A stretch of 64,000 nt of DNA from Paenibacillus silvisoli (GTDB taxonomy: Bacteria > Bacillota > Bacilli > Paenibacillales > Paenibacillaceae), in contig NZ_CP133017.1 in the NCBI RefSeq assembly GCF_030866765.1, positions 590,501 to 654,500 on the forward strand. The letters are read 5' to 3'. Positions within the stretch are counted from its first letter, which is position 1. Each line of letters opens with the position of its first letter. The notes beneath the pieces were generated by a model, which was not told the DNA's origin, made no database searches, and was given only the letters and a program-made list of their open reading frames with translations. This document shows, piece by piece, positions 50,963 to 57,695 of the stretch. A program made the translations under genes and the position numbers.

Positions 50963-51068
50963 AAATAACATTCTGGCCGGTCCCAACAGCGTGCTCCCTT
51001 GCCAAGCTTTTTTGCATGAGGTCCGCTTGAAGTGGTATCGTGTAAGTAGCACTACTAGGAGGAAGTTT

Positions 51069-52322
51069 ATGGCCACTACTACGGGAAAAAATAAACATAT
51101 CGCCAATATATCGCTTGGCGTCATGGCCGCGGGCTTCGCGGCGACGCTGCCGTTCCGCGAAGGCGGCCTCGGCTTGCTGCATGCGGGCTTCGAGGCGGGC
51201 GTCATCGGCGGGCTCGCGGACTGGTTTGCCGTCACGGCGCTGTTCCGCCATCCGCTCGGCATTCCGATTCCGCATACGGCGCTGTTGCCGAAGAACCGCA
51301 AGAAGATGTCGGACGGGATCGTCCGCGTCCTAGAGGAGCGGCTGCTCGCCAAGGAGAGCATGCTCGACAAGCTGCGCGAGCTCCAGCTTGCGGAGCAGCT
51401 GCTGCCGGCGCTCCGGCAAGGGCTGCACGCGGCGGTGCACAGCGAGCGCTTGCCGCAGCTGATCGAAGGCGCGCTGCGCGGCATACCGGCGGAGAAGCTG
51501 GTACCAATGATCACGGGCGAAATCCGTTCCGCCGTGGAGCGGATCGATCTGGAGGCGGCGCTTCGCGGCTTCCTGCGGAATGCGGCCGAGAACGGCCAGG
51601 ATGAGCGGCTGCTAGACCTGCTGCTGGAGCGCGCGGAAGAATGGGTCAACACGGAAGGCATGCGTAAAGAGTTCGGCAGCGCGGTCATGAAGCTTGTGCA
51701 AGGAATGAATTTGGGCGGCCTGATGCAATTTGCGGTCAATGCGTTTATAGGATATTTAGATGAAGATCGCGTTGGTACGATGCTGCAATCCTTCGTTATT
51801 ATGAAGATTCGGGAGCTTAAGATTCAAAGCAACGACCAGCGCGCCGCTATTCTGAAGCATTTGCACGATGGGCTGGATACGCTGATCTCGCGTCTATCCG
51901 AGACGGGACAGCTGCAGCTGATGCGCGACGAGCTGATCGGTTCCTTCGACCTGGATGGGGAGCTGGCACGGCTGCTTGAGGTTTGGCGGGAGAAGGGCAT
52001 CGCGTTCGCCCATTCGGAAACGTTCGCTGCTCAGGCATGGCCATTGGTCGAGCGGCTTCTGGATCGATTGGAGCAGAACCAGGGACTTATCCAAAGCGCA
52101 GAGCTCTGGCTGAAGGAGCAGGCGGCGGGACTCATCGAACGCAACCATGTCAGAATCGGTTCGTTCGTGAAGGAGAACCTTGACCGGCTGGACAACGATC
52201 AGCTTGTGGAGTTAATTGAAGATAAAGTCGGCCAGGATTTGCAATGGATTCGGGTCAACGGCGCGCTGTGCGGCTTCCTGATCGGCCTGCTGCTGCAAGG
52301 GATTCAAATGATTGTTGGCTAG
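51069..52322 (+). CDS. DUF445 family membrane protein
   Basis: 417 residues from ATG 51069, directly after AGGAGGAAGTTT. N-terminal hydrophobic region with LLHAGFEAGVIGGLADWFAV and TALFRHPLGIPIPHTALLPK, the DUF445 hallmark, a long helical middle, and a final hydrophobic helix (GALCGFLIGLLLQGIQMIVG). DUF445 proteins (YjiN/YheB group) are membrane-anchored and of unknown biochemical role. Monocistronic. Confidence 0.9.
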   Translation: MATTTGKNKHIANISLGVMAAGFAATLPFREGGLGLLHAGFEAGVIGGLADWFAVTALFRHPLGIPIPHTALLPKNRKKMSDGIVRVLEERLLAKESMLDKLRELQLAEQLLPALRQGLHAAVHSERLPQLIEGALRGIPAEKLVPMITGEIRSAVERIDLEAALRGFLRNAAENGQDERLLDLLLERAEEWVNTEGMRKEFGSAVMKLVQGMNLGGLMQFAVNAFIGYLDEDRVGTMLQSFVIMKIRELKIQSNDQRAAILKHLHDGLDTLISRLSETGQLQLMRDELIGSFDLDGELARLLEVWREKGIAFAHSETFAAQAWPLVERLLDRLEQNQGLIQSAELWLKEQAAGLIERNHVRIGSFVKENLDRLDNDQLVELIEDKVGQDLQWIRVNGALCGFLIGLLLQGIQMIVG

Positions 52323-52547
52323 GCCGCCCTGTGCTCGCCTTGCAGCCGGCGTTACTGCCTATGCGAATCGCCCTTATTTGCGCAAAACGGCGAATTAGTG
52401 AGGTAGAACGAGGCTGCTCGCGCGCCGATCGGTTGTAAGCGCTCTATTCGTGCCGTTCGGCAGGAAATGAGAACGAGACTGCTTGCGTGTTATCTTTACA
52501 AACTTCCGTGTCAGGCGTAACATACGAGTCATGTTTCATACGTTATC

Positions 52548-52697
52548 ACGCTGAATTTCTAGTTTAGAAATCGGGGGAACCATTCAATAGGGGTGAATCT
52601 TGAAGCTGGCGCGCCGCAAGGCCGGAGCTTCGAGTAGGGCGACTCTCACGCCCGAATCCGTCAGCTAACCTCGAAAGCGTATAAAGAGAGGCAACGA
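52548..52697 (+). ncRNA. c-di-AMP riboswitch (ydaO/yuaA class)
   Basis: The aptamer is recognised from its ordered conserved blocks: TCGGGGGAACC (52571-52581), GGGGTGAATC (52590-52599), GTAGGGCGACTCTCACGCCC (about 52633-52652), CCGTCAGCTAACCTCG (52658-52673), and AGAGAGGCAACG at the 3' end. The P1 ends are approximate. In this class c-di-AMP binding favours termination. An intrinsic terminator follows 40 bases later, before the KdpD-like gene. The rest of the 52323-52547 gap holds a degenerate family D half-site near 52370 and nothing else that I can support. Confidence 0.92.
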
Positions 52698-52736
52698 TTG
52701 TCCGTGCATATAGACACTTCATGATAACTTGTGCCT

Positions 52737-52799
52737 AGAAGCCGCGATAGAGCGTTCCTCTGTTTCACAAGAGGCAGTCTCATTGCAGGCTTCTTTTTT
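52737..52799 (+). terminator. Riboswitch expression platform (terminator)
   Basis: AGAAGCC (52737-52743) pairs with GGCTTCT (52788-52794), with an inner CCTCT/AGAGG hairpin, then a T run. An in-frame extension of the next gene crosses it, so that extension is not coding. Confidence 0.8.
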
Positions 52800-52877
52800 G
52801 TGCGTTTACGATGCTTGAAGCATAAGTTTGTGTTCAATATGTCAGTTTATAGATGTAGGAAGGAAGGCGAAATTGTT

Positions 52878-55208
52878 ATGGCTGGTTACCGCCGCAGAAC
52901 CCCGGAGGAATTGCTCTTATCCATATCCAAACTTCATCGCGGGCGCCTGAAAATTTATGTGGGCGCGGTCAGCGGCTCGGGCAAAACGTATCACATGCTG
53001 CGCGAGGGCCAAGGGCTTAAGCAGCAGGGGATCGAGGTCGTCGTCTGCGCGGTGTCGACGATGCGCCGGCCGGAGACGGTCGAGCAGCTCGCCGATTTGG
53101 AGCGGATTCCAAGCATTCACTGGTACAAGGGCGACGTGGAAAAAAAGGACCTTAATCTGGACGCCATCATTGAGCGGAACCCGGAGGTCGTCCTCGTCGA
53201 CGGGCTGGCGCACGAGAACCGCCCGGATGCGCAGTTTCCGACGCGTCTCGAGGACATCCAGTTTCTGCTAAGCCATGGCATCAGCGTCATAACAACGGTC
53301 AACGTCTACGAGCTGGAAGGCGTGACGGAGCTTGCGCAGAAGCTGACCGGCATCGAGGCGGAATGCACCGTCTCCGCCGATTTGCTCGAGCTCGCCGACG
53401 AAGTGCGGCTGATCGACGCATCGCCGGAGACGATCCTGAGCCGCCTGAACGACGGGCGTCTCTGCAACGTGAAGGATCCGGAGCTGCTGAAGCGCGGCAA
53501 CCTCGGCAAGCTCCGGGAGCTTGCGCTTCGGCTCATGGCCGAAGGCGTCAACGAGTCGCTGGAGAAATACCGCGAGGAGCAGGGCTTCTTCGGTCCATCC
53601 GGCGCGGCGGAGCGCATTCTTGTAGCGGCGCAGTATCACTGGAACGCTTCGATTTATATCCGCCGCGGCCAGCAAATCGCCAAGCGGCTGGGCGGCGACC
53701 TGCAGGTTGTCGTTTTCGCGGACAGCAGTCAGGAGCCTACGAAGGAGCGGGAGGATTTCAAACGTTCGATCCTCAAGCTCACCGAGAAGGTCGATGCGGG
53801 CTTCCGCGAAATTTCGGTCAGCAATAGAAGACAGGTACCGCGCGCGCTCGTTCAATATGCGATGCTCATCAATGCGACCCGCATCATCATGGGCCATTCG
53901 AAGCAGACGCGTTCGGAGGAGTTCTGGCAAGGGTCCATCGCGGGCAGCGTATTGAAGCAAAGCCGCAATATCGACGTCTTCTTCATGGCGGACCGCGCGG
54001 CGAATGAAGGCGAGCGGGTGCTGCCGACGATGCGCAAGTCGTCGAAGCAGACGGCTGAGCCGTACCGCCGGCTAAGCACGCAGGAAGTAGAGAAGAAGAT
54101 CGAAAGCTTCCGCCGAGGTAAATTCAAAGTTTATATCGGCGCGGCGCCCGGGGCAGGAAAGTCGTATATGATGCTGCGCGAGGGCAACGATTTGCTGCGC
54201 AAAGAGATCGATGTCGTCGTCGGTCTAATGGAAACGCACAACCGCGCGGATACGCTGGGTCAGGCCGGCAAGCTGGAAGTCGTGCCGCGGCTGACGATCG
54301 ATCATGAAGGTAAGCAATATAGCGAGATGGATGTCGCTGCTATTCTGAAGCGAAATCCGGAGGTCGTGCTCATCGATGAGCTGGCCCACACGAATGCGCC
54401 GGGCAGCCGCCACAAGCGGCGCTACGAGGATGTGCAGGAAATTCTTGCGGCTGGCATTTCCGTCATCGCGACGATGAACGTGCATCATCTGGAAAGCTTG
54501 AAGGATGCCGTGGAGCAAATTACGGGTACGGCGGTGGAAGAGACCGTTCCCGATACGATTCTTCGATTGGCCGACGAGGTCGAGCTGATCGACGTGTCGC
54601 CGGATACGCTGCGCCAGCGAATAAAGGAAGGCCAGATCTGTAAACCGGAGGAAGTGGAGGAAGCGCTTTGCGGCTTCTTCAAGACGGGCAACCTGATCGC
54701 GCTGCGCGAGCTTGCGCTTCGGGAGATCGCCGACGATGTCGACGAGCGGCTGGAGGCTTGGGAGCGCAACGGCTCGCTTCGCGGCCCATGGCGGCGACAT
54801 GAATCGATATTCGTAGCGATTACGCCGGGCAAGCGGGCAGAACGGCTCATCCGCCGCGGCTTCCGGATCGCGCACCGGCTGAAAGCGGATTGGCATGTCC
54901 ATTACGTACAGACGTCAGCGGGCACGGATGACGCGAAACGGCTGGAGGAGCTCGAGGAGCTGACGGTGCGTCTTGGGGGGACGTTCGAGGTGGAGCAAGC
55001 GGCCTCGCAAAACGCCATTCCGGATGCGCTCCTGGCGAAGGCGAATTCGCTCAAGAGCACGCAGATGATTCTCGGCCAGTCCAGCCGGAGCTTCTGGAGC
55101 AAGCTGCAGCAGAAGCCGGTGGTCGATACGATTTTGCGGGAAGGCCGGCATATGGATGTGCTGGTCGTAGCGGATTTTAATCCAAACATCGCGCTCGGAG
55201 ACGAATAG
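52878..55208 (+). CDS. Tandem KdpD sensor/USP protein without histidine kinase
   Basis: 776 residues. ATG 52878 follows the AGGAAGGAAGGCGA site. Two copies of the KdpD N-terminal module are fused. Copy 1: degenerate KdpD domain with Walker A GAVSGSGKT (Lys36), Walker B-like VVLVDGLAHENRP, then a USP-like domain (about 245-375). Copy 2 from about 400: canonical GAAPGAGKS, VVVGLMETHNRADT, VVLIDELAHTNAPGSRHKRR, then a second USP-like domain (about 640-770). There is no TM, HisKA or HATPase region and no kdpFABC beside it. KdpD USP domains are known to bind c-di-AMP in Staphylococcus; here c-di-AMP may act on both RNA and protein (inference). Confidence 0.9.
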   Translation: MAGYRRRTPEELLLSISKLHRGRLKIYVGAVSGSGKTYHMLREGQGLKQQGIEVVVCAVSTMRRPETVEQLADLERIPSIHWYKGDVEKKDLNLDAIIERNPEVVLVDGLAHENRPDAQFPTRLEDIQFLLSHGISVITTVNVYELEGVTELAQKLTGIEAECTVSADLLELADEVRLIDASPETILSRLNDGRLCNVKDPELLKRGNLGKLRELALRLMAEGVNESLEKYREEQGFFGPSGAAERILVAAQYHWNASIYIRRGQQIAKRLGGDLQVVVFADSSQEPTKEREDFKRSILKLTEKVDAGFREISVSNRRQVPRALVQYAMLINATRIIMGHSKQTRSEEFWQGSIAGSVLKQSRNIDVFFMADRAANEGERVLPTMRKSSKQTAEPYRRLSTQEVEKKIESFRRGKFKVYIGAAPGAGKSYMMLREGNDLLRKEIDVVVGLMETHNRADTLGQAGKLEVVPRLTIDHEGKQYSEMDVAAILKRNPEVVLIDELAHTNAPGSRHKRRYEDVQEILAAGISVIATMNVHHLESLKDAVEQITGTAVEETVPDTILRLADEVELIDVSPDTLRQRIKEGQICKPEEVEEALCGFFKTGNLIALRELALREIADDVDERLEAWERNGSLRGPWRRHESIFVAITPGKRAERLIRRGFRIAHRLKADWHVHYVQTSAGTDDAKRLEELEELTVRLGGTFEVEQAASQNAIPDALLAKANSLKSTQMILGQSSRSFWSKLQQKPVVDTILREGRHMDVLVVADFNPNIALGDE

Positions 55209-55300: not shown

Positions 55301-55329
55301 TTGAAACGCTCTTAGATTCTTGGTAGAAT
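55301..55329 (+). promoter_or_regulatory. Extended -10 promoter of the amino-acid ABC operon
   Basis: TTGAAA (55301-55306), 17 bases, TGG-TAGAAT (-10 at 55324-55329). AGATTCT/AGAATCT repeats overlap it at 55314, 55325 and 55344. Confidence 0.75.
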
Positions 55330-55366: not shown

Positions 55367-56194
55367 ATGAAAAAGTGGTATTTTATTGCAGTTCTTACAC
55401 TTGTCGCTGCAGTTGTTCTCTCCGGCTGCGGAGCGAAATCTTCAAACAATAATGCAGGCGGCGAGGCTGGCAACGGTGGCGAAGATGTGACTTACATGTT
55501 CGCCACTGACGCGGCTTACGCGCCTATGGAATACATGGACAAAGACGTTATCTCGGGATTCGACATCGAATTTCTTGATCTTGTCATGGAAGAAGCGGGT
55601 CTGAAACACGAAGTGAAGCACACGGGTTGGGACGGCATGCTGGAAGGCGTGAAGCAAGCGAATGAATTCCAAGCCGGCATCTCCAGCATCTCCATCACGG
55701 ACGACCGTAAACAAACGTACGACTACTCGATGCCTTATTTCGAATCCATCAACGTGATTATGGTGAAGGAAGGCAGCGACATTAAGAGCGCGCTTGATCT
55801 GAAAGGCAAGAAGGTTGCGGTGCAAAGCGGCACGACGGCCGATATTCTCATGACGGGCATTATGGGTGAAGGCAATACCGATCTGAAGAAGATGGACAGC
55901 AACGCCGTTGCTCTGCTTGAGCTGGATCAAGGCGGCGCGGATGCGGTTGTAGCGGATATCGCGATCGTTCGCGATTACATCAAGAACAACCCGGACAAGA
56001 AATACGTTGAAGTGTCGGATACGACAAACTTCACTCCGGAATACTACGGCATCCTGTACCCGAAAGGCAGCGACCTGAAGGCGAAGCTGGATCCGGCAAT
56101 CAAAACGGTTATCGAGAATGGCAAATATGCGGAACTGTACAAAAAATGGTTCGGTGAAGAGCCGAATACGGCGAATCTGCTGAACGCGAAGTAA
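55367..56194 (+). CDS. Polar amino-acid-binding lipoprotein (TcyA/GlnH family)
   Basis: 275 residues, ATG after AGGGGGA. Lipobox LSGC (Cys21). The mature protein begins YMFATDAAYAPMEYMDKDVISGFDIEFLDLV and has FQAGISSISITDDRKQTYDYS, both standard for SBP family 3. The next two genes are its permease and ATPase. Ligand class is polar amino acid; cystine, glutamine or another cannot be told apart. Confidence 0.92.
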   Translation: MKKWYFIAVLTLVAAVVLSGCGAKSSNNNAGGEAGNGGEDVTYMFATDAAYAPMEYMDKDVISGFDIEFLDLVMEEAGLKHEVKHTGWDGMLEGVKQANEFQAGISSISITDDRKQTYDYSMPYFESINVIMVKEGSDIKSALDLKGKKVAVQSGTTADILMTGIMGEGNTDLKKMDSNAVALLELDQGGADAVVADIAIVRDYIKNNPDKKYVEVSDTTNFTPEYYGILYPKGSDLKAKLDPAIKTVIENGKYAELYKKWFGEEPNTANLLNAK

Positions 56195-56311
56195 GAGGCG
56201 CCAAGGGCATGCGCAACTGCGCATGCCTTTTTATTGATTCGGGTGCGAGCGGCGGGATGATCCGGTGCGGTGCCCAACATCGGTGTATCGTATACGAAAG
56301 GGCGAATTGGG

Positions 56312-56959
56312 ATGGATTTTAGATTTGATATTATTTGGGATTATGCGCCTCTTCTTCTCAAGGGGACGCTCTATACGATCGGAATCTCGCTCTCGAGTAT
56401 TCTGCTCGGCTCGATTCTTGGCCTTGGCGTAAGCTTCGGCAAAATGTCGTCGCGCTGGTTCCTCCGCTGGCCGATGCAATCGTACGTAAACTTTTTCCGT
56501 GGAACTCCGCTGCTGGTGCAGATCTATATCGTGCACTTCGGACTCATTCCGCTTCTTTACGGTAAAACAAACGCGATCATCGCGGCTATTACCGCGCTAT
56601 CCTTGAATGCTGCAGCCTACACGGCTGAAATTTATAGAGCCGGCATCCAGTCGATCGACAAAGGGCAGATGGAAGCGGCCAAATCGCTCGGCATGACGCA
56701 TGGCCAAGCGATGCGCTTCATTATTTTGCCGCAGGCGATCAGACGGATGATTCCGGCGTTCGGCAACGAATTTATCGTCCTCGTGAAGGACTCCTCGCTG
56801 GTGGCGCTCATTACCGCGCCTGAAATTATGTACTGGAGCAACGCGATGAAGGCGCAGTATATTCGCGTATGGGAGCCGTATCTGGCGGCTGCGTTCATTT
56901 ATTTCATTCTAACGTACACCTTGAATAAGATTCTAGGTGCAGTGGAAAGGAAAGTATAA
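56312..56959 (+). CDS. Amino-acid ABC transporter permease (HisM/GlnP family)
   Basis: 215 residues from ATG 56312; an in-frame GTG at 56270 lacks support. Five TM helices and the motif [20 protein letters not shown], then [20 protein letters not shown] (ATPase contact). Single permease, so it is likely a homodimer. Confidence 0.93.
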
Positions 56960-56963
56960 TCCC

Positions 56964-57695
56964 ATGAACCCTATTATCGAGGTTACGGATCTATCGAAAG
57001 CGTTCGGCGACAACGTCGTGCTTAAAAATATTTCGGCCAGCATTAACAGCCAGGAGGTTGTCGTCGTCATCGGTCCGTCCGGTTCAGGCAAATCGACGTT
57101 TCTGCGCTGCCTGAACTTGTTGGAGGAGCCGACTGGCGGCAACATCGTCATCGACGGACAGTCGCTCATGGACAAGAAAACGAGCATCACCGGCGTCCGC
57201 ACCGAGGTCGGCATGGTGTTCCAGCAGTTCAATCTGTTCCCTCATCTGACCGTGCTGGACAATATTACGCTGGGCCCGGTCCAGATCCGCAAATGGCCGG
57301 CGCAGAAAGCGAAGAGCAAAGCGATGGAGCTGCTGCAGAAGGTCGGCCTTTCCGACAAGGCCAACGCCAAACCGGCTTCGCTGTCCGGCGGCCAATCGCA
57401 GCGCGTAGCCATTGCGCGCGCGCTCGCCATGGAGCCGAAGATTATGCTGTTCGACGAGCCGACATCGGCGCTTGATCCGGAAATGGTCGGCGAGGTGCTT
57501 GCCGTCATGAAGGAGCTTGCGAAGGAAGGGATGACGATGGTCGTCGTCACCCACGAAATGGGCTTCGCACGCGAGGTCGGCGACCGCGTGATCTTCATGG
57601 AGCAGGGCTATATCGTGGAGCAGGGCACGCCAAGGCAAATTTTCGAGCATCCGCAGCAGGAACGGACGAAAGCGTTCTTGTCGAAGGTGCTTTAG
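56964..57695 (+). CDS. Amino-acid ABC transporter ATPase (GlnQ family)
   Basis: 243 residues from ATG 56964, 4 bases after the permease stop, with AAAGGAAAG in front. Walker [19 protein letters not shown]-loop [16 protein letters not shown], signature [15 protein letters not shown], Walker [15 protein letters not shown] and the H-loop [12 protein letters not shown] are all intact. Confidence 0.95.

What the first reader, a model, noticed from the sequence alone, without database searches (positions are those of the whole stretch)
52548..55208. c-di-AMP riboswitch controlling a kinase-less, duplicated KdpD sensor
A ydaO-class aptamer and terminator stand before a 776-residue protein made of two fused KdpD-sensor/USP modules and nothing else: no membrane part, no histidine kinase, no kdpFABC nearby. 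Copy 1 has lost Walker B Glu and much of the conserved motif, copy 2 keeps all of it, so one may be regulatory. Because KdpD USP domains bind c-di-AMP in Staphylococcus, the nucleotide may control both the synthesis and the activity of this protein: a possible dual-level potassium or osmotic sensor.
Basis: partly seen in the sequence, partly recalled or inferred. Interest (0 to 1): 0.82.

Follow-up and report, generated by a model that had tools for sequence, protein, structure and literature searches.

The report
Riboswitch-controlled orphan twin KdpD regulator
A Paenibacillus-type bacterium carries a potassium-pump regulator made of two fused copies of the KdpD sensor, without the usual kinase or the pump genes beside it, and placed behind an RNA sensor for the messenger c-di-AMP; it looks like the kept regulator of a second, lost pump operon and may let cells tie potassium uptake to c-di-AMP from a distance.

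Summary
Window 52539-52695 is a c-di-AMP (ydaO) aptamer (101.2 bits, best of six in this genome), followed by a terminator and a 776-residue protein of two KdpD modules with no membrane part or histidine kinase. The same chromosome has a kdpFABC operon with its own c-di-AMP riboswitch, a paralogous twin KdpD, a separate membrane kinase and a KdpE-like regulator. Twin KdpD is common in this family, each module fits NCBIfam NF038185, and KdpD domains are now known as serine kinases that switch off KdpB. The window gene belongs to an orphan lineage in 13 of 22 genus genomes, 13 of 13 with the riboswitch and with kdpA elsewhere. It branches with kdp-operon copies of Cohnella, so it looks like the regulator kept from a lost second operon. 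Its kinase-competent second module has lost on average 15.4 of 113 otherwise conserved positions, while the catalytically dead first module stays conserved. c-di-AMP binding by the protein ('dual level') finds no support in the published motif but is not excluded. Best reading: a c-di-AMP-gated regulator acting in trans on Kdp.

The parts
52495..52523 (+). possible sigma-A promoter of the leader (TTTACA, 17 nt, TAACAT)
   Evidence: 9 of 12 consensus match; TTTACA and TAACAT seen in 12 of 13 leaders aligned (the L049 stretch starts downstream of it)
52539..52695 (+). c-di-AMP (ydaO/yuaA) riboswitch aptamer
   Evidence: RF00379 101.2 bits, E 6.8e-23; RF00379 upstream of 13 of 13 orphan copies, 229-340 nt before the KdpD match
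52686..52696 (+). 5' arm of a possible antiterminator (GAGAGGCAACG), complementary to 52753-52761 (CGTTCCTCT) with one bulge
   Evidence: read from sequence; GAGAGGC and ACG invariant in 13 of 13, CGTTCCTCT in 12 of 13 (L052 differs); pairing inferred, no covariation shown
52737..52799 (+). intrinsic terminator: AGAAGCC/GGCTTCT stem enclosing a CCTCT/AGAGG hairpin, then T run
   Evidence: fold -29.5 kcal/mol, z -3.4; GAAGCC/GGCTTC and T run invariant in 13 of 13
52878..55208 (+). orphan twin KdpD protein (two KdpD-USP modules, 776 aa)
   Evidence: N terminus of the MAGYRRKTPEE type in the orthologues printed
52935..53549 (+). KdpD domain of copy 1: Walker A kept (G29-x5-GKT), Walker B Glu lost (D108-G109)
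   Evidence: PF02702 219.8 bits; Glu absent in 87 of 88 twin proteins incl. 13 of 13 orphans
53595..54017 (+). USP-like domain 1 (residues 240-380 by my own boundaries; conserved AQYHWN(G/A)S loop)
   Evidence: Usp 22.1 bits on its own, under the cut-off of 24; loop conserved; c-di-AMP motif not met
54111..54740 (+). KdpD domain of copy 2: G421-x5-GKS, D500-E501, R581, Y430; kinase-competent by sequence but diverged in orphans
   Evidence: PF02702 298.3 bits
54795..55187 (+). USP-like domain 2 (residues 640-770 by my own boundaries)
   Evidence: lies inside the NF038185 match 396-766; no Usp row in Pfam for module 2 alone
50991..52322 (+). DUF445 protein, conserved upstream neighbour (before the riboswitch)
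   Evidence: PF04286 237 bits; upstream in 13 of 13 orphan loci counting the window
55367..57695 (+). polar amino-acid ABC transporter (binding protein, permease, ATPase), conserved downstream neighbour with a promoter-like site of its own at 55301-55329
   Evidence: downstream in 12 of 13 orphan loci counting the window

Best explanation
A transcription-terminating c-di-AMP riboswitch makes this protein only when c-di-AMP is low (low cell potassium). The protein is a kinase-less tandem KdpD left behind when a second, Cohnella-like kdp operon lost kdpFABC in this lineage. It now acts in trans on the Kdp system encoded elsewhere in the chromosome. Shown by sequence: riboswitch, terminator, tandem modules, conserved orphan lineage, kdpA in the same genomes, purifying selection. 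Inferred: it is an OFF switch; it arose from a lost operon; its target is still the Kdp system; and, because the dead first module is the conserved one while the kinase-competent module has drifted, it probably modulates or competes with the operon-encoded serine-kinase KdpD (protecting the pump while potassium is scarce) rather than being the main KdpB kinase. That last step is the weakest: about 0.3 on its own.
For: Aptamer and expression platform. Two diadenylate cyclase matches in the genome. Genus survey: 13 of 22 genomes have two twin KdpDs; 13 of 13 orphan copies have RF00379 on the same strand 229-340 nt before the KdpD match, against 13 of 21 kdpA loci with one within 2 kb upstream. 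The 8 without were rescanned with cmscan and have none; in 6 of these genomes the orphan carries it. KdpA is in 13 of 13 orphan genomes and 8 of 8 solo-copy genomes (six of them the same genomes by coordinates). G152, with no KdpD, has no KdpA. Tree of 94 rows: orphans on one branch (SH-aLRT 100), grouped with seven Cohnella operon copies (96), not with the genus's own operon copies. Relics: P. filicis keeps tandem riboswitches, 78 residues of kdpC and an intact twin KdpD; P. sp. H1-7 has kdpABC without KdpD in 16 kb, and its only twin KdpD, behind tandem riboswitches, lies about 610 kb away. Selection: in the nine printed species pairs orphan dN/dS is at most 0.27; mean dN ratio NTD2/NTD1 over 36 pairs is 2.32 in orphans, 1.09 in operon copies of the same nine species. 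Conserved NTD2 positions changed: mean 15.4 of 113 in orphans, 0 to 4 in the other clades and single rows tested. The KdpD domain is a serine kinase for KdpB (PMC11018627: sections 7 and 8 and the first part of 9 read).
Against: No experiment. 11 of 13 orphans keep K, D, E and R of copy 2 (Thr is Ser in 7 of 13), so kinase activity may remain. The conserved neighbours are an amino-acid ABC transporter and DUF445, not Kdp genes. In B. thuringiensis, deletion of a short kdpD did not change kdp transcription (PMC6488665, passages); that leaves a post-translational role open but gives no support. Presence of kdpA is weak evidence, since 21 of 22 genus genomes have it. The other two solo proteins, L074 and L077, show no drift of NTD2, so the antagonist idea does not follow from being solo. 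A high NTD2/NTD1 ratio alone is not unique: the operon copy L123 scores 4.47 with 3 changes against none.
Confidence: 0.5

Rival explanations
1. The orphan is simply a second atypical serine kinase: its copy 2 phosphorylates KdpB Ser of the distant kdpFABC and shuts the pump; copy 1 is a structural or regulatory pseudokinase. Riboswitch control ensures that inhibitor and pump are made together.
For: Copy 2 keeps Walker A, D-E and the adenine Arg; KdpB keeps TGES; short KdpDs do this (PMC11018627); 13 of 21 kdpA loci of the genus have the same riboswitch.
Against: Each orphan has 13-20 of 116 conserved NTD2 positions changed, including the equivalents of E. coli N151 and R163 (same residues in D. 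radiodurans) in 13 of 13; catalytic Glu replaced in 2 of 13. The genome already has an operon copy for this job.
Confidence: 0.25
2. Dual-level control: c-di-AMP represses synthesis through the RNA and also binds a USP domain to set the protein's activity.
For: S. aureus KdpD USP binds c-di-AMP (PMC8214093) and D. geothermalis short KdpD is stimulated by it (PMC11018627).
Against: Motif (A/G/C)xSxSx2N(Y/F): the first position fits, Ser244, Ser246 and Asn249 do not. Ser244 is Tyr or Phe in USP1 of 82 of 82 proteins, and Thr in USP2 of 7 of 7 orphans; in USP2 of the other 75 it is Ser in 3. The last position (Tyr271) was not tested. D. radiodurans KdpD fails the same three positions, so absence of the motif is not proof.
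Confidence: 0.15
3. The orphan has been recruited to another target, for instance the neighbouring amino-acid ABC transporter or another potassium transporter.
For: DUF445 upstream in 13 of 13 and the ABC transporter downstream in 12 of 13 orphan loci; changed NTD2 positions.
Against: The ABC genes have a promoter-like site of their own and are not found in L217, where the orphan stays; kdpA in 13 of 13.
Confidence: 0.15
4. A decaying relic with no present function.
For: Origin by loss of kdpFABC is suggested by comparison with L074; relaxed NTD2.
Against: Open frame in 13 of 13, purifying selection with NTD1 dN lower than in operon copies, conserved riboswitch and terminator.
Confidence: 0.05

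Closest known systems
NCBIfam NF038185, KdpD-like non-kinase potassium sensor (single KdpD-USP module, 373 positions)
   Same: Two stretches match: 732 bits for the whole protein, cut-off 550
   Different: Two fused modules, the first catalytically degenerate; orphan locus under its own riboswitch
Short KdpD / atypical serine kinase for KdpB (D. geothermalis, PMC11018627)
   Same: KdpD-USP without membrane or histidine kinase part; copy 2 has the catalytic residues
   Different: Tandem, diverged copy 2, not next to the pump; activity not tested
c-di-AMP riboswitch of the kdpFABC operon of B. thuringiensis (PMC6488665)
   Same: c-di-AMP riboswitch before a Kdp-related gene
   Different: Here it precedes only the regulator; the pump operon is elsewhere, with a kinase and KdpE-like regulator as well
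Split KdpD (serine-kinase chain and histidine-kinase chain on separate proteins, PMC11018627)
   Same: The kdp operon of this genome is of that type: twin KdpD, then DUF4118-GAF-HisKA-HATPase kinase, then response regulator
   Different: The window copy has no kinase partner beside it

Membership tests
c-di-AMP (ydaO/yuaA) riboswitch RF00379 | Covariance-model match above gathering score over the full aptamer | tested here: met
   101.2 bits, cut-off 38, positions 1-134
c-di-AMP (ydaO/yuaA) riboswitch RF00379 | Expression platform downstream of the aptamer | tested here: met
   Terminator folds at z -3.4, conserved in 13 of 13; antiterminator pairing inferred only
c-di-AMP (ydaO/yuaA) riboswitch RF00379 | Binding of c-di-AMP and c-di-AMP-dependent termination | not testable with these tools
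   needs in-line probing or a transcription assay
KdpD-like non-kinase sensor NF038185 | Score over curated cut-off, no histidine kinase | tested here: met
   732 bits, cut-off 550; no HisKA or HATPase_c row
KdpD sensor histidine kinase (NF007793) | Membrane, HisKA and HATPase parts | tested here: not met
   509.9 bits against cut-off 1123; kinase families absent
Atypical serine kinase for KdpB (KdpD N-terminal domain), copy 2 | G-x5-GK(T), Walker B D-E, adenine pair W39/R190 (E. coli) | tested here: met
   GAAPGAGKS, D500-E501, R581; Tyr in place of Trp and Ser in place of Thr, so met with two conservative changes. Activity not testable here
Atypical serine kinase for KdpB, copy 1 | Walker B Glu | tested here: not met
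   Gly in the window; Glu absent in 87 of 88 twin proteins
c-di-AMP-binding KdpD USP domain (PMC8214093) | (A/G/C)xSxSx2N(Y/F) motif | tested here: not met
   USP1 A-Q-Y-H-W-N-A-S, USP2 A-I-T-P-G-K-R-A at the first four motif positions and between them; last position not tested; D. radiodurans KdpD fails it too
Universal stress protein domain, copy 1 and copy 2 | Pfam Usp over cut-off in each module | tested here: inconclusive
   Whole protein 29.9 (cut-off 24); module 1 alone 22.1; module 2 no row.
Kdp operon member | Adjacent to kdpFABC | tested here: not met
   Only KdpA match of the genome is about 450 kb away

The most novel reading that the evidence does not exclude
The orphan twin KdpD is a riboswitch-gated antagonist of the KdpD serine kinase: a protein whose conserved core is a pseudokinase module that, when c-di-AMP is low, blocks inhibitory phosphorylation of KdpB (by competing for KdpB or pairing with the operon-encoded twin KdpD), so that c-di-AMP controls the pump's off-switch through RNA rather than through a protein-bound nucleotide. 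It would be a pseudokinase-based anti-inhibitor made from the remains of a lost operon.
Probability: 0.22. Interest if true: 0.75.

Novelty: new variant of a known kind. Interest (0 to 1): 0.52.

Why it matters
c-di-AMP is a major controller of potassium in Gram-positive bacteria, and the finding that KdpD switches off the pump by serine phosphorylation is recent (PMC11018627, 2024). An orphan, riboswitch-controlled tandem KdpD with a natural pseudokinase half is a ready-made system for asking how that kinase is restrained. The survey also bears on a printed claim: PMC6488665 (section 11 read) reports riboswitch-controlled kdp operons in 12 species and suggests that riboswitch and KdpDE are mutually exclusive. 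Here 58 of 70 kdpABC loci carrying a twin KdpD have the riboswitch by pattern, and 20 of 70 have both it and a kinase plus regulator nearby. In the genus, Rfam and tblastn show the combination in the window's own genome and in G182, G105 and G168 (in G168 the riboswitch score is only 40.7 against 38).

Tried and rejected
Dual c-di-AMP receptor: not supported by the USP motif, but the motif also fails in D. radiodurans KdpD, so I did not treat it as disproved. Recent in-genome duplication of the operon copy: rejected by the tree. Co-transcription with the downstream ABC transporter: less likely, because of a promoter-like site with extended -10; a terminator between the two genes was not found by that scan. 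Covariation of terminator and antiterminator: the leaders are too conserved to show it, so only conservation is claimed. Structure prediction and fold comparison: not available. Papers: I saw no orphan or duplicated KdpD in the listed rows (20 of 41 listed; 14 of 16; 15 of 135; 15 of 128; 7 of 7), which show titles and abstract starts only; one listed genome paper, PMC10740426, holds the phrase 'KdpD-like non-kinase' once and was not opened. PMC11018627 has no 'duplicat', 'repeat' or 'two copies' in its main text. A search for DUF445, Paenibacillus and potassium together returned none.

Limits: the 80 loci are the best of 322 matches to patterns from copy 1, so they are biased toward twin proteins. 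Counts use tblastn and a pattern and ask only for presence in the fetched stretch (in L101 and L122 kdpABC lies on the other strand). The pattern agreed with Rfam on all 16 sites in six loci and on absence in 6 of the 12 operon loci without a pattern hit; the other 6 were not checked. In one search only 93 first-look candidates per genome were scored, so I rescanned the 8 kdpA loci without a hit; the G056 contig ends 2.5 kb upstream. The genus counts were read by eye (distances); sub-cut-off rows and one partial PF02702 match in G001 were left out. The tree is a quick one with SH-aLRT only and a midpoint root. In one search I compared chosen clades and single rows, not every subtree. One search printed dN/dS for nine pairs; some operon dS values were saturated. 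One search used 30 of the 75 other rows. A note in the notebook says 57 loci for the small ORF; the recount is 56.
Full report
What is there. The window (C1:590501-654500 of a 6.73 Mb genome in one contig) holds, in order, a DUF445 gene, a promoter-like site, a c-di-AMP aptamer at 52539-52695, a terminator ending near 52799, and an ATG at 52878 opening a 776-residue protein. The aptamer scores highest of six in the genome. The others precede the kdp operon, a KamA-family radical SAM gene, and genes for a G5-3D protein, a LysM-3D protein and an NlpC/P60 protein. Two diadenylate cyclase matches are present.

The protein. Pfam finds KdpD twice and Usp weakly; NCBIfam NF038185 'KdpD-like non-kinase potassium sensor' matches in two stretches, 732 bits. 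Module 1 keeps Walker A but has D-G in place of D-E; module 2 has D-E, the adenine-contacting Arg and a Tyr in place of Trp. In PMC11018627 (section 7 read) both Walker B residues were essential in E. coli KdpD for phosphorylating KdpB Ser162, and the TGES motif is present in this genome's KdpB. Over 88 twin proteins the Glu of module 1 is missing in 87, while module 2 has it in 75 of 75 non-orphans and 11 of 13 orphans.

It has a relative in a kdp operon. At C1:1105192-1115256 the genome has a riboswitch (85.8 bits), a small unknown ORF, short kdpF-like frames (read, no family search), kdpA, kdpB, kdpC, a 774-residue twin KdpD, a DUF4118-GAF-HisKA-HATPase kinase and a response regulator. The window copy is 63% identical to that twin KdpD.

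How common is it? NF038185 rings in 245 of 295 family genomes at E up to 0.001, none over the curated cut-off; the search is not specific, since it also rings in 9 of 14 control genomes. In a sample of 299 Bacilli genomes, 108 match the window protein at E up to 1e-40; 45 of the listed places cover the whole twin protein, in families f1, f22, f27, f33, f3 and f48, while most other places cover one module. In genome contigs 322 stretches encode relatives; I worked on the best 80. Of these 70 have kdpA, kdpB and kdpC in the fetched stretch, 8 have none (solo), and 2 (L110, L123) have part. By pattern, 58 of the 70 have a riboswitch within 3 kb upstream of kdpA, 31 have two or more, 26 have kinase and regulator nearby, and 20 have riboswitch, kinase and regulator.

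The orphan lineage. In the genus, 21 of 22 genomes have a twin KdpD and 13 have two. All 13 second copies have RF00379 on the same strand, 229-340 nt before the KdpD match. Of 21 genomes with kdpA, 13 have RF00379 within 2 kb upstream of it; the other 8 have none on rescanning, and in six of them (G056, G020, G001, G129, G066, G077) the orphan alone carries it. All 13 orphan genomes have kdpA; the one genome without KdpD also lacks KdpA. Neighbours are conserved: DUF445 upstream in 13 of 13 and the ABC transporter downstream in 12 of 13, counting the window. In a 94-row tree the orphans sit on one branch (100) with seven Cohnella kdp-operon copies (96), away from the genus's own operon copies. 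So the gene looks like the survivor of a second kdp operon type. Two other solo cases fit loss of the pump with the regulator kept. In P. filicis (L074) tandem riboswitches and the small ORF are followed by 78 residues of KdpC and then an intact twin KdpD. In P. sp. H1-7 the only twin KdpD (L077, tandem riboswitches) is about 610 kb from a kdpABC locus that has its own tandem riboswitches and no KdpD within the 16 kb fetched. In H1-7 the regulator must act in trans if it acts on Kdp at all.

Constraint has moved. Among positions at least 95% conserved in the 75 non-orphans, an orphan has changed on average 1.7 of 85 in the KdpD domain of module 1 but 15.4 of 113 in that of module 2; in the other clades and single rows tested the module 2 figure was 0 to 4 and the module 1 figure 0 to 4.2. 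For nine species that have both copies, mean dN (Nei-Gojobori, 36 pairs) is 0.067 for NTD1 and 0.151 for NTD2 in orphans, 0.095 and 0.102 in operon copies. Positions equivalent to E. coli N151 and R163, the same in D. radiodurans, are changed in 13 of 13 orphans. dN/dS in the printed orphan pairs is at most 0.27, so the gene is kept by selection, but its kinase-competent half is no longer the most protected half. The other two solo proteins (L074, L077) show none of this, so the change belongs to the orphan lineage and does not follow from being solo.

How it most likely works. By analogy with PMC6488665 the leader should terminate when c-di-AMP is high, so the protein is made at low c-di-AMP, when potassium is scarce. 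A straightforward KdpB inhibitor made at that moment makes sense only if its kinase is held off until potassium returns; for short KdpDs c-di-AMP itself is proposed to release it (PMC11018627, sections 8 and 9), but the published USP motif (PMC8214093, section 11 and passages read) is not met by either USP domain here. Together with the drift of NTD2 this makes me prefer a modulating or antagonistic role toward the operon-encoded KdpD or KdpB. This is inference. The kinase reading, the dual-receptor reading and a new target all remain open.

Verdict. Real, conserved, and more interesting as a lineage than as a single locus; its parts are known kinds (riboswitch, non-kinase KdpD, KdpD serine kinase). 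New as far as the listed rows of my searches show: a stand-alone riboswitch-controlled twin KdpD lineage with shifted constraint, and kdp operons that combine the riboswitch with a kinase and regulator.

Noticed in passing
L077:9548-9955 and L011:1952-2347: Two families of small proteins (131-136 aa, no Pfam or NCBIfam match) encoded after c-di-AMP riboswitches in kdp loci; the first has tblastn relatives in 56 of 80 loci, L077 itself included. Possibly unknown Kdp accessory proteins.
   Followed up: partly
L047-L126: 20 of 70 kdpABC loci have both a c-di-AMP riboswitch upstream and a kinase plus response regulator nearby, against the printed suggestion that the two are mutually exclusive; 31 of 70 have two or more riboswitch hits.
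   Followed up: yes
L074:9140-10040: Truncated kdpC (78 residues) between riboswitches and an intact twin KdpD in Paenibacillus filicis: a kdp operon that seems to have lost its pump.
   Followed up: yes
L223 and L077: Paenibacillus sp. H1-7: kdpABC with tandem riboswitches but no KdpD in the 16 kb around it; its only twin KdpD is solo under another tandem riboswitch.
   Followed up: yes
L075:8799-10061 (also L076, L081, L083, L084, L088): A DUF445 gene (PF04286, 280 bits in L075), about 40% identical to the window's, lies between kdpC and the twin KdpD in the P. tyrfis group; DUF445 also precedes 13 of 13 orphans. Chance or functional link unknown.
   Followed up: partly
L012:3270-4478: A KamA-family (lysine 2,3-aminomutase-like) radical SAM gene directly behind a c-di-AMP riboswitch, with a BCCT transporter gene nearby: possible osmolyte synthesis.
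   Followed up: partly
G077:C1:1777921-1779562: kdpA is split in two frames (462 and 146 codons) in one genus genome: frameshift or sequencing error.
   Followed up: no
L064, L066, L071: Near-identical twin KdpDs and similar kdp loci filed under Paenibacillus, a Brevibacillus MAG and Siminovitchia terrae: recent transfer, contamination or misnaming.
   Followed up: no
family f6 genomes: Another (unnamed) Bacilli family has several frames of about 750-800 codons with two KdpD modules that both align best to module 2: perhaps an independent duplication.
   Followed up: no
L221 (G001:C45:38039-38323): Partial KdpD match (98 bits, profile 110-210, 269-codon frame) in the genome that matches P. taihuensis by coordinates, perhaps a broken third copy.
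   Followed up: no
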